Made by a program: the position numbers and the translations under genes. A stretch of 64,000 bases of DNA from Prevotella sp. (GTDB lineage: Bacteria > Bacteroidota > Bacteroidia > Bacteroidales > Bacteroidaceae): assembly GCA_016286575.1 (NCBI GenBank), contig JAEETB010000001.1:1-64000 (forward strand), read 5' to 3'. Positions 126 to 45,696 of this stretch are shown one piece after another (position 1 is the first letter of the stretch; the number at the start of each line of letters is the position of its first letter). The notes under the pieces were generated by a model, which saw only the letters and a program-made list of their open reading frames with translations, was not told where the DNA came from and did no database searches.

Positions 126-482
126 TTAGTTTGGATAGCAGTAGACAGCAACTGCATACAGGTTATTACTCTTAATCTCAATACTGTCACCATCAGGACT
201 CTGAAGCTGTAACATCTTAACCTCCCAGGTCATCTGCTTTGGAGTTTCTTCCTCCAGCGAGAGGGATATGAAAGAGTGCTGCGGCTGCTCCACTGGCTTT
301 GTTGCAGAATAGGTTTTCTTGAACTCCATGAGCCAATTGTAGTCCACTGCTTCATCCTTACCGCTCGGCTTTGCCGCTTGCCACCAACGGGACGCAAGAA
401 TATTACGCAGGCTCCTTCCATTACGGTTCTGGTTGTAGTCCTGCATTACTTTCTCAAAATACTCTCTTGTCTCCATAATCAA
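126..482 (-). CDS. IS66-family accessory protein (TnpA-like) carrying an in-frame extra segment
   Basis: METREYFEKVMQDYNQNRNGRSLR... aligns by eye with the ORF at 7955-8374 and the start of 24332-24613; extra NILASRWWQAAKPSGK segment. Confidence 0.7.
   Translation of the reverse strand: MIMETREYFEKVMQDYNQNRNGRSLRNILASRWWQAAKPSGKDEAVDYNWLMEFKKTYSATKPVEQPQHSFISLSLEEETPKQMTWEVKMLQLQSPDGDSIEIKSNNLYAVAVYCYPN
361..403. repeat. short double-hairpin repeat, copy 1 (inside tnpA-like ORF)
   Basis: ccgctCGGCtttGCCGCTTGCcaccaacgggacGCAAGaat; same core as copies at 13896, 14970 and 25986. Confidence 0.7.
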
Positions 483-7076: not shown

Positions 7077-8024
7077 TCAAGCGACCTTTTTTTCCTGCTT
7101 CTTTCCAGGTGTATAATAACACGGGATCATTGACCTGTAGTCATCATCGCCATTCATCATACGGGTCAGTATGTCCTCAACATACTCACCAAAATCAATA
7201 TCGTTCATCTTGCAGCTCTCATACAGAGAGTACATGAAGGCAATATTGGTCGCAGCGTCATGGCTGCCAGAGTTCAGCCAACACCTCCTACCCATAGCCG
7301 CTCGAACTTGTTCGCTTATATGAGCGTAGCGAGTCTTAAGAATGTGACGAAAAACGGATTCGACCGCATTGTTATGCATTTCTATTCTACCATCATGAAG
7401 GAATTTCTTGAAAGCTTCCTCGTCATCGAGTATGTAATTTACCGCTCGCATGACCAGTGCCCCATATTTGTCTTTTTCAGCTCTTATCTTCTTCAGTAGG
7501 CTCATTATCTTGCCCACTATCGAAGCACTGTATTCCAATCGGAACCGATGTCGCCTCTCTGGCGTGTAGTTTCTCGCTTTGGCCTCACGCTCTATCAGGA
7601 ACAATGCATTAATAAGCTGTATCAGCACCAGTACGCGATGGTCAGAGACGAAAGCGTCACCAGATAGTGGGCTTCCTTCCTTATAGAGCATCACCACCAG
7701 TTTCTTCTCCAGTGACAAGGCGGCATGGATATACTCCGTATTGTACTTGAAGTCATCTTCCTTGCTCTTGCGGCTGCGTACCAGTATGCGGGTCTCATCG
7801 TTCTGCACAAAGTTGCAGCTTCTTATCACTTCCAGCATCAGTACTTCCAACCGTGTTCTGAGGTAGTCCATTATCTGATGGATGTATTTGTTCAGCGTAG
7901 ATTGTGGGAAGTGGCACTTCATACTCTCAAGCATCCTGATGACATTCTCCTCACTCAAGTAATAGGCAAACTTCGACTCGAAGTAGAAACGGCAGAAGCT
8001 GGGCATAAGCGGATTACCCTCCAC
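7077..8024 (-). CDS. IS66 transposase (TnpC), N-terminally truncated, with in-frame insertion
   Basis: EMHNNAVESVFRHI...GRRCWLNSGSHDAATNIAFMYSLYESCKMND typical of IS66 transposase C-terminus. Confidence 0.75.
   Translation of the reverse strand: MEGNPLMPSFCRFYFESKFAYYLSEENVIRMLESMKCHFPQSTLNKYIHQIMDYLRTRLEVLMLEVIRSCNFVQNDETRILVRSRKSKEDDFKYNTEYIHAALSLEKKLVVMLYKEGSPLSGDAFVSDHRVLVLIQLINALFLIEREAKARNYTPERRHRFRLEYSASIVGKIMSLLKKIRAEKDKYGALVMRAVNYILDDEEAFKKFLHDGRIEMHNNAVESVFRHILKTRYAHISEQVRAAMGRRCWLNSGSHDAATNIAFMYSLYESCKMNDIDFGEYVEDILTRMMNGDDDYRSMIPCYYTPGKKQEKKVA
7298..7343. repeat. short double-hairpin repeat, copy 2 (inside transposase ORF)
   Basis: ccgctCGAACttGTTCGcttatatgagcgtagcgagtcttaagaatg; shares frame and tail with copy at 25986. 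Confidence 0.65.
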
Positions 8025-8374
8025 GATGGTCTGCGGCTTTTTGCCAAGCTATTACTGTTGATGTCTATGAATCCTCCGTCGGGACTCTCAAGCCGGAGGT
8101 GAGATACCTGCCAGACTGGCTTGGGTTGAGTCTTCTCCTCTTCGATGACCAAGGGAATGAAAGACTGAGGGTCTGGTTCCGATTCCTGGACTGGCTTTGT
8201 CTCATTGGGATATGTCCTTTTGTATTCCTGCAGCCATTTGTAGTCAATGCCTTCATCCTGGCAGTACTTGCGGAGGCTGCGCCCGTTTCGATGCTGGTTG
8301 AAGTCCTGCATCACTTTTTCGAAATATTCCTTTGTCTCCATACTGTAATAGTTTAAACGGAGGCAAAGGTACAT
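7955..8374 (-). CDS. IS66 TnpA-like ORF, 3' end frameshifted over the transposase remnant
   Basis: METKEYFEKVMQDFNQHRNGRSLRKYCQDEGIDYKWLQEYKRTY; C-terminal tail is an out-of-frame reading of the transposase. Confidence 0.65.
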   Translation of the reverse strand: MYLCLRLNYYSMETKEYFEKVMQDFNQHRNGRSLRKYCQDEGIDYKWLQEYKRTYPNETKPVQESEPDPQSFIPLVIEEEKTQPKPVWQVSHLRLESPDGGFIDINSNSLAKSRRPSWRVIRLCPASAVSTSSRSLPIT

Positions 8375-13357: not shown

Positions 13358-13891
13358 ATGACAATTAAAAAATGTACGTGTATGAACAGTAACAATTCAT
13401 TATCACCGCATTTCGAGCTCCGCGAATTTGTCGTCAGTCAGACGGCTCTCGATCATGGGCTTGACAACACGCCTCCCGCTGAGGCGGTAGAGAACCTTCG
13501 CGCTCTCTGCGTTCACACACTGGAACCGCTTCGTGAGGCCCTGGGCTTGCCCATCATCATCACCAGCGGCTACCGTTGCAAGAAACTCAACCACCTTCTG
13601 GTGAACCACTCCACGAAGAGCCAGCACATGAACGGCGAAGCAGCGGACTTCTATGTGGGCTGGAACGGTCCCGAAAATGAGAAACCCTCACGCTGGGAAC
13701 TCCTCATCAAGGCCTTCCGCCAGATCATTACGGATGACAGCATTGCTTTCGATCAGTGTATCATCTATCCCTCTTTCATCCACGTGAGCTACGTGCGTTC
13801 CGGTCACAAGAACCGCAGCAAACTCACTCGCGGTTTCGGTAATGGCAAGTATGCCGCCCTGACCCGTGCACAAGCTTTAGCGCTGGAATAA
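13358..13891 (+). CDS. M15-family peptidase (D-Ala-D-Ala carboxypeptidase/endolysin-like)
   Basis: HFELREFVVS...IIITSGYRCKKLNHLL...STKSQHMNGEAADFY. Confidence 0.8.
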   Translation: MTIKKCTCMNSNNSLSPHFELREFVVSQTALDHGLDNTPPAEAVENLRALCVHTLEPLREALGLPIIITSGYRCKKLNHLLVNHSTKSQHMNGEAADFYVGWNGPENEKPSRWELLIKAFRQIITDDSIAFDQCIIYPSFIHVSYVRSGHKNRSKLTRGFGNGKYAALTRAQALALE

Positions 13892-13895
13892 TTTT

Positions 13896-13945
13896 CCGCT
13901 CGACCCGAAGGGGCGCTTGCTACCAACGGGAAGCAAGAATCTTCA
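13896..13945. repeat. short double-hairpin repeat, copy 3
   Basis: ccgctcgacccgaaggggcgcttgctaccaacgggaagcaagaatcttcaa, almost identical to copy at 14970. Confidence 0.75.
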
Positions 13946-13984
13946 ATTTTCAATATTTAATTTTCAATTAAACATTTAGAATTT

Positions 13985-14969: not shown

Positions 14970-15020
14970 CCGCTCGACCCGAAGGGGCGCTTGCTACCAA
15001 CGGGACGCAAGAATTTTCAA
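14970..15020. repeat. short double-hairpin repeat, copy 4
   Basis: ccgctcgacccgaaggggcgcttgctaccaacgggacgcaagaattttcaa. Confidence 0.75.
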
Positions 15021-24231: not shown

Positions 24232-24684
24232 GTAAATTACCATTTTGACGTAAACCTGATTTTCAGCAAGTTACACACAAAACATTTTTGGAAAAAATCA
24301 CTTGGGTTAATAATCAACCCGATTGACAGAGTCAGGCCACCTTTTTTTGCTCTTCCTTGGATGAAAGAGACTTATAATTGCATGGGATGAGAGACTTGTA
24401 ATCATTCTCACCCTTCGTCAGTCTGGGCAGCACATCATTTATGTAATCAAAGAAGTTCAGATCATTGAGCTTACAACTTTCATACAGTGAGTACATGAAG
24501 GCTACATTCTGAGCTGCCATATGGCTACAATTCTTTCGCAGGCTCCTGCCATTGCGGTTCTGGTTGTAGTCCTGCATTACTTTTTCGAAATACTCTCTTG
24601 TCTCCATAATCAACTGAAATATGAATTTGGCGACGAAAGTAAATATTATATACTGAATGACCTTACGCTAGCATGATGGCTTTC
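24232..24684. mobile_element. IS66-derived MITE-like deletion element (~450 bp)
   Basis: Termini gtaaattaccattttgacgtaa and reverse complement of ttacgctagcatgatggctttc; contains a fused tnpA/tnpC remnant. Confidence 0.65.
24332..24613 (-). CDS. chimeric ORF: TnpA N-terminus fused in frame to IS66 transposase C-terminus
   Basis: METREYFEKVMQDYNQNRNGRSLRKNC | SHMAAQNVAFMYSLYESCKLND...EEQKKVA. Confidence 0.6.
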   Translation of the reverse strand: MIMETREYFEKVMQDYNQNRNGRSLRKNCSHMAAQNVAFMYSLYESCKLNDLNFFDYINDVLPRLTKGENDYKSLIPCNYKSLSSKEEQKKVA

Positions 24685-25687: not shown

Positions 25688-26077
25688 GTATGCATCCAAC
25701 CTTTTTTACCATAAGCCCTAGCCCCAACATTTGCTGGGGTTCTTGGACACTATAAGTAAATTGGACTATTTGTTGTTTTGAGACCATCAAGCAGGTCGTT
25801 AATACGCTTCTGATAACCATTTCGTTCCATATCAGACATCCCCCCTACAGCCGACGCCTCTGCTTCCAGCTACATCGCGTACCGGCATTGCATAATCATG
25901 CGCTATATATCTATCTTCAAATCCCATAACGTTTCAATGTCTTTACTACTTACTGCCATATCTTCTGTTTTTAGAATTAATGGCACCGCTCGGCTTTGCC
26001 GCTTATTCGAGCTCCGCGAGTCTTAAGAAAGGTAATAACTATATCTCAGACCACCTAAAAAGGGGTTGGATGCTTAC
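25688..26077. mobile_element. MITE-like element with imperfect ~20-bp terminal inverted repeats
   Basis: gtatgcatccaaccttttttacc ... cctaaaaaggggttggatgcttac; same terminus at 45585. Confidence 0.6.
25986..26031. repeat. short double-hairpin repeat, copy 5 (inside the MITE-like element)
   Basis: ccgctCGGCtttGCCGcttattcgagctccgcgagtcttaagaaag. Confidence 0.7.
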
Positions 26078-26262
26078 TCAAAGTCTACAATGTCCTCAAA
26101 GGTCTTTGACTCCAAATGCACGTGACATTCCTCATTGACATCAAACCATAGCCCCCCCTATTAATGGCAAATCCCATAATCAGTCCATGCTATTGATCCA
26201 CATGCTCCCCCAACGGACACACTCTGTATAGTGAGAATATATGGTATTTCATACTTTAGATA

Positions 26263-45427: not shown

Positions 45428-45584
45428 ATGTCCAATACCTACCTGGACAAGGCTATTGAGGCCATACCAAAATTCGGAGACCGAATTTCGCTCTTTGCCC
45501 AAAAACTCCGTCTGGCTCAGTACGCTGATGGTACTATTTATGACTATCGTCTCAAAATAGCTCAGGCGGTGTTGTATCTCAAGA
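45428..45584 (+). pseudogene. N-terminal fragment of a tyrosine recombinase/integrase, truncated by an IS end
   Basis: MSNTYLDKAIEAIPKFGDRISLFAQKLRLAQYADGTIYDYRLKIAQAVLYL then an IS terminus at 45585. Confidence 0.45.
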
Positions 45585-45696
45585 GTATGCATCCAACCCC
45601 TTTTTATACGTAAACAGCCAATTTTGACGTATAGCCCCAAAAGGTTGCCCTTTTAGGTAACTTCCGCTTTTTGTTCGACTAAATTTTAAATTATTA

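What the first reader, a model, noticed from the sequence alone, without database searches (positions are those of the whole stretch)
7298..7343. Second in-frame copy of the repeat, in the IS66 transposase, with a covarying hairpin
The transposase reads VESVFRHI-LKTRYAHISEQVRAAMGRRCWLNSGSH, whereas IS66 transposases usually have about 5 residues (like ALGRR) here, so about 42 bp has been gained in frame. The first stem is CGAAC-tt-GTTCG, versus CGGC-ttt-GCCG at 361 and 25986 and CCC-gaa-GGG at 13896 and 14970. The sequence changes but the pairing is kept, which suggests selection or copying of a structured nucleic acid. Two subtypes share the 5' half; the 3' half is either CTTGC...GCAAG or CTTA...GAGTCTTAAG.
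Basis: partly seen in the sequence, partly recalled or inferred. Interest (0 to 1): 0.72.

Follow-up and report, generated by a model that had tools for sequence, protein, structure and literature searches.

The report
Tiny mobile hairpin element in Prevotella
The extra 42 bases in this transposase gene are one copy of a very small (about 30-47 bp) jumping DNA hairpin, found in tens to about a hundred copies in many rumen Prevotella genomes and in related phage contigs, that drops cleanly in front of an 'AA', often in frame inside genes, with no known enzyme to move it.

Summary
IS66 homologues from two other genomes lack exactly 14 residues (42 nt, 7299-7340) that this copy has. The segment belongs to a two-hairpin family with 16-18 copies in this genome, up to 111 in a relative, in 72 of 120 genomes of the genus, and almost absent elsewhere in the order. 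Hairpin 1 and, in short subtypes, hairpin 2 covary beyond shuffled and shifted controls. Empty sites show clean insertion: no target duplication, no deletion, immediately 5' of AA. Two viral contigs, 95.8% identical over 2.5 kb, differ by one copy. Copies nest in one another's loops, in other palindromes' loops and in period-7 tandem arrays. It is therefore mobile DNA of the REP / Rickettsia-palindrome / cyanobacterial small-dispersed-repeat kind. It does not fit GTAG or CGTC REPs, MITEs or RAYT-flanked REPINs by the tests run. The mobiliser is unknown: RAYT-like transposases correlate but do not flank it and are dispensable; reverse transcriptases do not track it. Movement as a single-stranded hairpin is the best guess, not shown. 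The host IS66 copy is decayed, so this insertion is probably neutral.

The parts
7299..7340 (+). the 42-nt element copy, type B 3' module, inserted in frame in the IS66 transposase
   Evidence: exact 14-aa gap in homologues G069 and G080; covariance-model match 7298-7342, E 1.7e-5
7303..7314 (+). hairpin 1 of this copy: CG-AAC-TT-GTT-CG
   Evidence: direct reading; the same stem position covaries across copies
7315..7340 (+). 3' module of this copy, CTTATATGAGCGTAGCGAGTCTTAAG: CTTA/TAAG stem with inner GC-GTA-GC
   Evidence: direct reading; subtype shared with 25987-26027 and with G020 and G028 copies
7341..7342 (+). AA dinucleotide of the target, just 3' of the insertion
   Evidence: AA follows 152/154 core copies and 32/32 copies retrieved by covariance model; AA is present in most empty alleles
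7077..8024 (-). decayed IS66 transposase ORF (315 aa) carrying the insertion
   Evidence: Pfam DDE_Tnp_IS66, 6.4e-18; lacks the N-terminal half and ~51 internal residues relative to the 649-aa homologue
362..398 (+). sibling copy, type A 3' module (37 nt), in a small IS66-linked ORF
   Evidence: net gain 36 nt against the paralogue near 8262, so the junction is not perfectly clean
13897..13937 (+). sibling copy, type A, intergenic, flanked by AATTTTC / AATCTTC
14971..15011 (+). sibling copy, type A, intergenic, flanked by AATTTTC on both sides
25987..26027 (+). sibling copy, type B, intergenic

Best explanation
The segment is one copy of a genus-restricted, non-coding, non-autonomous mobile element of about 30-47 bp. 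Its layout is CGCTCG-[hairpin 1]-CGCTT-[hairpin 2]-AAG, with interchangeable hairpin modules. Shown: it is dispersed, its stems are kept by compensatory change, and it inserts exactly 5' of an AA dinucleotide (3' of TT on the other strand) with no target duplication or deletion. Shown: it is found in hairpin loops (including its own), in period-7 arrays and in open reading frames. Inferred: it moves as a folded single strand that is joined to a single-stranded or unpaired target, by an enzyme supplied in trans. An HUH/Y1-type single-strand transposase is the likeliest class. In IS66 here it sits in frame in an already decayed gene, so it is a passenger without a host function.
For: Insertion relative to homologues. 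Copy numbers: 28, 37, 91 and 111 in four relatives, 16-18 in this genome. Covariation in hairpin 1 and hairpin 2. Clean empty alleles in related loci, within-genome duplicates and viral contigs (L157/L170, L198/L198, L052/L052, L330/L309), including 95.8% identity over 2,543 bp with a total gap of 39 nt. AA follows 32/32 model-retrieved copies. Nested insertion at C^AA in the loop of another copy (L037). Flanking palindromes >= 6 bp at 21 of 171 sites against 4.3 expected. Lag-7 periodicity only. Loops that begin with G are always GNA (7/7 against 8/40 otherwise, p = 1e-4), as expected of a selected strand-specific hairpin. No duplication and a fixed dinucleotide on one side resemble IS200/IS605 chemistry (established knowledge).
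Against: No enzyme is tied to it. G032 (97% complete, 34-37 copies) has no Y1_Tnp domain hit and only a 41-residue RAYT fragment. In the complete genome G141 orientation relative to replication is 15:13 by my count, so there is no lagging-strand bias (n = 28). RAYT genes carry different palindromes. Some junctions are imperfect (8 of 24). Many sampled sites come from pattern searches that contained AAGAA, which biases the AA statistic except. Covariation counts are sequences, not independent events.
Confidence: 0.85

Rival explanations
1. It is a REPIN-type element mobilised by the ~265-300 aa RAYT-like Y1 transposases found in this genus.
For: The RAYT-like protein is in this genome (G000:C246) and is enriched among element-bearing genomes: 28/31 versus 44/89, p = 4e-5; >= 10 copies in 14/31 versus 15/89, p = 0.003. 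Insertion without duplication and hairpin structure fit.
Against: None of the eight long-RAYT genes inspected is directly flanked by the element (nearest about 2 kb away); each carries its own, different palindromes. Fifteen high-copy genomes lack the RAYT, though some are incomplete. There is no conserved terminal GTAG tag. The correlation is not corrected for phylogeny.
Confidence: 0.25
2. It moves through an RNA intermediate and reverse transcription, as has been suggested (from memory) for cyanobacterial SDRs.
For: Covariation and GNA loops on one strand; insertion without duplication; analogy with SDRs.
Against: RVT_1 genes do not track copy number: this genome, G018, G022, G028 (99% complete, 21 copies), G031 and G032 have no hit.
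Confidence: 0.12
3. It is an ordinary MITE moved by a DDE transposase.
For: Short, dispersed, non-coding.
Against: No terminal inverted repeats. No target duplication in the clean empty/filled pairs. Apparent 4-7 bp direct repeats are explained by period-7 arrays that continue in phase across the element.
Confidence: 0.04
4. It is a functional structured RNA or terminator kept by selection at each site rather than a mobile sequence.
For: Compensatory changes; many copies lie between genes.
Against: Presence/absence differences between close relatives and viral contigs, insertion inside ORFs in several frames on both strands, nesting, and no Rfam match.
Confidence: 0.04

Closest known systems
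Small dispersed repeats (SDR) of Nostoc and relatives (Elhai et al. 2008, doi 10.1101/gr.074336.107; paper not held, described from memory; precise SDR5 insertion inside HIP1 quoted from PMC4390886)
   Same: Very small, restricted to a coherent clade, structure kept by compensatory mutation, found in heptamer arrays and nested in copies of themselves, precise insertion in a short target
   Different: Longer (30-47 versus 21-27 nt), two hairpins, target is N^AA, Bacteroidota host, also in viral contigs and in frame inside genes; no sequence comparison with SDRs was made
REP / REPIN elements with RAYT transposases (PMC2817692, PMC3116915, PMC3733652)
   Same: Short palindromic mobile repeats; RAYT-like genes occur in the genus
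   Different: No conserved terminal GTAG or CGTC tag, does not flank the RAYT genes, often inside genes
Rickettsia palindromic elements (PMC10969869, citing Ogata et al. 2000, 2002)
   Same: Palindromic selfish DNA inserted in frame in unrelated genes
   Different: RPEs are about 150 bp and encode a conserved peptide; here the element is 30-47 bp and is read in several frames and on both strands
IS200/IS605-derived non-autonomous elements
   Same: Hairpin structure, no target duplication, fixed bases at one flank
   Different: No shared ends with a Y1 element found; no replication-strand bias in the one complete genome tested

Membership tests
Cyanobacterial-type small dispersed repeat | compensatory changes in a shared secondary structure | tested here: met
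Cyanobacterial-type small dispersed repeat | embedding in heptameric tandem repeats | tested here: met
   lag-7 identity 0.365 versus 0.258 at random positions, other lags near background
Cyanobacterial-type small dispersed repeat | nested insertion into copies of itself | tested here: met
   L037 and L036
Cyanobacterial-type small dispersed repeat | sequence homology to a named SDR family | not tested
   SDR sequences were not on hand
GTAG/CGTC-tagged REP | unpaired GTAG or CGTC tetranucleotide at one end of the hairpin | tested here: not met
   7299-7340 has no such terminal tag on either strand (the only GTAG is internal, in the loop of the inner GC-GTA-GC hairpin); in type A both strings lie inside hairpin 2 (direct reading; definition from PMC3733652)
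REPIN/RAYT | element flanks the RAYT gene | tested here: not met
   none of eight long-RAYT genes inspected; of 20 Y1 loci only two other Y1 genes have a copy within 200 bp
REPIN/RAYT | RAYT gene present in the genome | tested here: inconclusive
   28 of 72 element-bearing genomes; in this genome yes
MITE | terminal inverted repeats | tested here: not met
   ends CGCTCG and AAG are not inverted repeats of each other (direct reading)
MITE | target-site duplication | tested here: not met
   clean empty/filled junctions
IS200/IS605 relative | insertion without duplication next to a fixed short target | tested here: met
   N^AA in 32/32 model-retrieved copies; clean empty sites
IS200/IS605 relative | replication-strand orientation bias | tested here: not met
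   15:13 in G141, small sample
IS200/IS605 relative | cleavage by a Y1 HUH transposase | not testable with these tools
   needs biochemistry
Rickettsia palindromic element | about 150 bp and encodes a conserved peptide | tested here: not met
   30-47 bp; read in several frames on both strands

The most novel reading that the evidence does not exclude
A previously unrecognised class of minimal mobile DNA in Bacteroidota. A 30-47 nt strand-specific DNA hairpin with swappable stem modules joins to the 3' side of TT in single-stranded or unpaired targets. It uses an enzyme outside the RAYT and reverse-transcriptase families, or a host replication/repair activity, and it spreads through phages as well as chromosomes.
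Probability: 0.35. Interest if true: 0.85.

Novelty: new variant of a known kind. Interest (0 to 1): 0.62.

Why it matters
How DNA segments of a few tens of bases jump is an open question raised by SDRs, CGTC-type REPs and Rickettsia elements. This family offers high copy number, clean empty sites, presence/absence differences in near-identical viral contigs, a cultured host species (Xylanibacter brevis ATCC 19188, L083), and genomes that carry many copies while lacking the obvious candidate enzymes. The parallel with cyanobacterial repeats (period-7 arrays, nesting, compensatory stems) suggests a recurrent mechanism. It also adds 13-14 residue segments to proteins, which affects annotation.

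Tried and rejected
Target-site duplication: apparent 4-7 bp direct repeats turned out to be period-7 arrays running in phase through the element, and empty sites are clean. RAYT flanking: inspected at 20 Y1 loci, not systematic. RT requirement: no tracking with copy number. Lagging-strand bias: none in G141. Length multiple of 3 among copies in long ORFs (46/52): discarded as evidence because frame-breaking copies are excluded by construction. Rfam: no match in window 1-30000. The SDR paper was not held. Literature searches found no description of this family in Prevotella, but subscription papers are not covered.

Full report
OBSERVATION. The IS66-type transposase ORF at 7077-8024 (-) carries 14 residues, LKTRYAHISEQVRA, between FRHI and AMGRR. 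The two closest homologues in the genus, from G069 (58% identical) and G080 (57%), lack exactly these residues, and so do most of the more distant IS66 proteins aligned. At DNA level 42 nt (7299-7340) lie between CATAGC and AATGTG, and the homologous DNA runs straight through. The gene is decayed: relative to the 649-aa homologue it lacks the N-terminal half and about 51 further residues inside the catalytic region, so retention of frame says little about function.

THE FAMILY. The pattern CCGCTCG-N-CGCTT-N-AAGAA occurs 10 times in the host genome and never in reversed form. A covariance model of 53 gapless type-A copies finds 16-18 copies in this genome and, at the more sensitive setting used for small sets, 28, 37, 91 and 111 in four relatives. 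It is present in 72 of 120 genomes of the genus, but in only two others of 393 genomes sampled across the order, each a single weak match. A scan of named genomes returned Prevotella/Prevotellaceae, Alloprevotella and other Bacteroidaceae/Bacteroidales records, most of them from rumen and other ruminant-gut samples, and one isolate, Xylanibacter brevis.

STRUCTURE. Hairpin 1 sits between CTCG and CGCTT and comes in many stems: GGC-TTT-GCC, AGC-TCT-GCT, ACC-TCT-GGT, GCC-GAA-GGA, AAC-TT-GTT and others. On a gapless alignment the middle pair is C-G in 27, G-C in 23 and A-U in 1 of 53 distinct sequences. Two-sided changes number 29 against 12.5 +/- 2.0 in shuffles, with almost none when the pairing is slid. 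Hairpin 2 is invariant within type A. In the short subtype its outer variable pair is G-C 10, C-G 4, U-A 4 with no exceptions; slide -3 there scores nearly as high on covariation but pairs only 51% of cells. Loops that begin with G always end with A (C-GNA-G, 7/7 against 8/40 otherwise, p = 1e-4). This is a strand-specific feature known for very stable mini-hairpins and hints that the + strand is the folded one; that inference is mine.

MOBILITY. Joining the flanks of each copy and searching the fetched DNA finds empty alleles. Clean examples are L157/L170 (94.9%), L198 and L052 (duplicates within one locus), L182/L132, L102/L080 and L134/L035. Sixteen of 24 stricter cases are gap-free at the junction. 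The strongest case is a pair of viral contigs, L330 and L309, which align over 2,543 bp at 95.8% with a total gap of 39 nt, equal to the 39-nt element. L330 carries two copies in frame in one 354-aa protein. The insertion point is immediately 5' of AA: 152/154 core copies (biased by search patterns) and 32/32 copies retrieved by the model. No duplication or deletion is seen at clean junctions.

WHERE IT LANDS. Flanking palindromes of at least 6 bp occur at 21 of 171 sites (4.3 expected). Copies sit in the loops of other palindromes and of other copies (L037, TACC^AACGGGAC). Flanks show period-7 repetition and no other period, in phase across the element. One repeated context, GTGAAG^AATTTGCTTCCGC, carries the element in either orientation at two positions, each of the form N^AA. 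In long open frames it is read in several frames on both strands.

WHO MOVES IT. Y1_Tnp genes occur in 73 of 120 genomes. A 265-300 aa RAYT-like subfamily is enriched in element-bearing genomes (28/31 versus 44/89, p = 4e-5, not corrected for phylogeny), but none of the eight inspected is directly flanked by the element and they carry their own, different palindromes. G032 has 34-37 copies at 97% completeness with no Y1_Tnp hit and only a 41-residue RAYT fragment. Reverse transcriptases are absent from this genome and from several high-copy genomes. Orientation relative to replication in the complete genome G141 is 15:13 by my count from the listed positions and a sampled GC skew. The mobiliser is therefore unknown. 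Absence of duplication and a fixed dinucleotide on one side favour single-strand HUH-type chemistry, at roughly one in three in my judgement. RNA-mediated insertion and host-enzyme ligation remain open.

RELATION TO KNOWN THINGS. The family works like cyanobacterial small dispersed repeats (compensatory stems, heptamer arrays, self-nesting) and like Rickettsia palindromic elements (in-frame residence in genes). It fails the defining tag of GTAG/CGTC REPs and the duplication and terminal-repeat tests of MITEs. I class it as a new variant of the very-small-mobile-repeat kind. The confidence of 0.85 on the best explanation refers to its being a mobile hairpin element with clean N^AA insertion, not to the HUH step.

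Noticed in passing
flanks of copies, e.g. L014, L031, L065, L144, L160; window 13891-13960: Period-7 tandem arrays of many different heptamers (TTCAATG, AACTCTC, AATTGAG, GAAGAGT, ACAACGG) occur around the elements across Prevotella genomes, recalling cyanobacterial heptamer repeats; their origin is unexplained.
   Followed up: partly
G000:C246:3199-3972 (L304) and L216, L217, L220, L222: RAYT-like genes of 265-300 aa flanked by long palindromes, several with GGGACGG or CCTGTCCC cores that differ from gene to gene; the small element has inserted in loops of similar palindromes (L079, L169).
   Followed up: partly
window 26056-26079 and 45583-45606: 24-bp inverted repeats, 96% complementary, enclosing about 19.5 kb; possibly ends of a larger mobile unit.
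   Followed up: no
window 126-482, 7077-8374, 24335-24622: Three decayed IS66-linked remnants in one window, two of them carrying the element.
   Followed up: partly
L330:1043-2107: A 354-aa protein on a viral contig with two in-frame copies of the element (FLRPDGSKRPKAER and LLRPDGSKRPKAER).
   Followed up: yes
L168:792-5910: Five copies of different subtypes within about 5 kb, several apparently inside ORFs.
   Followed up: no
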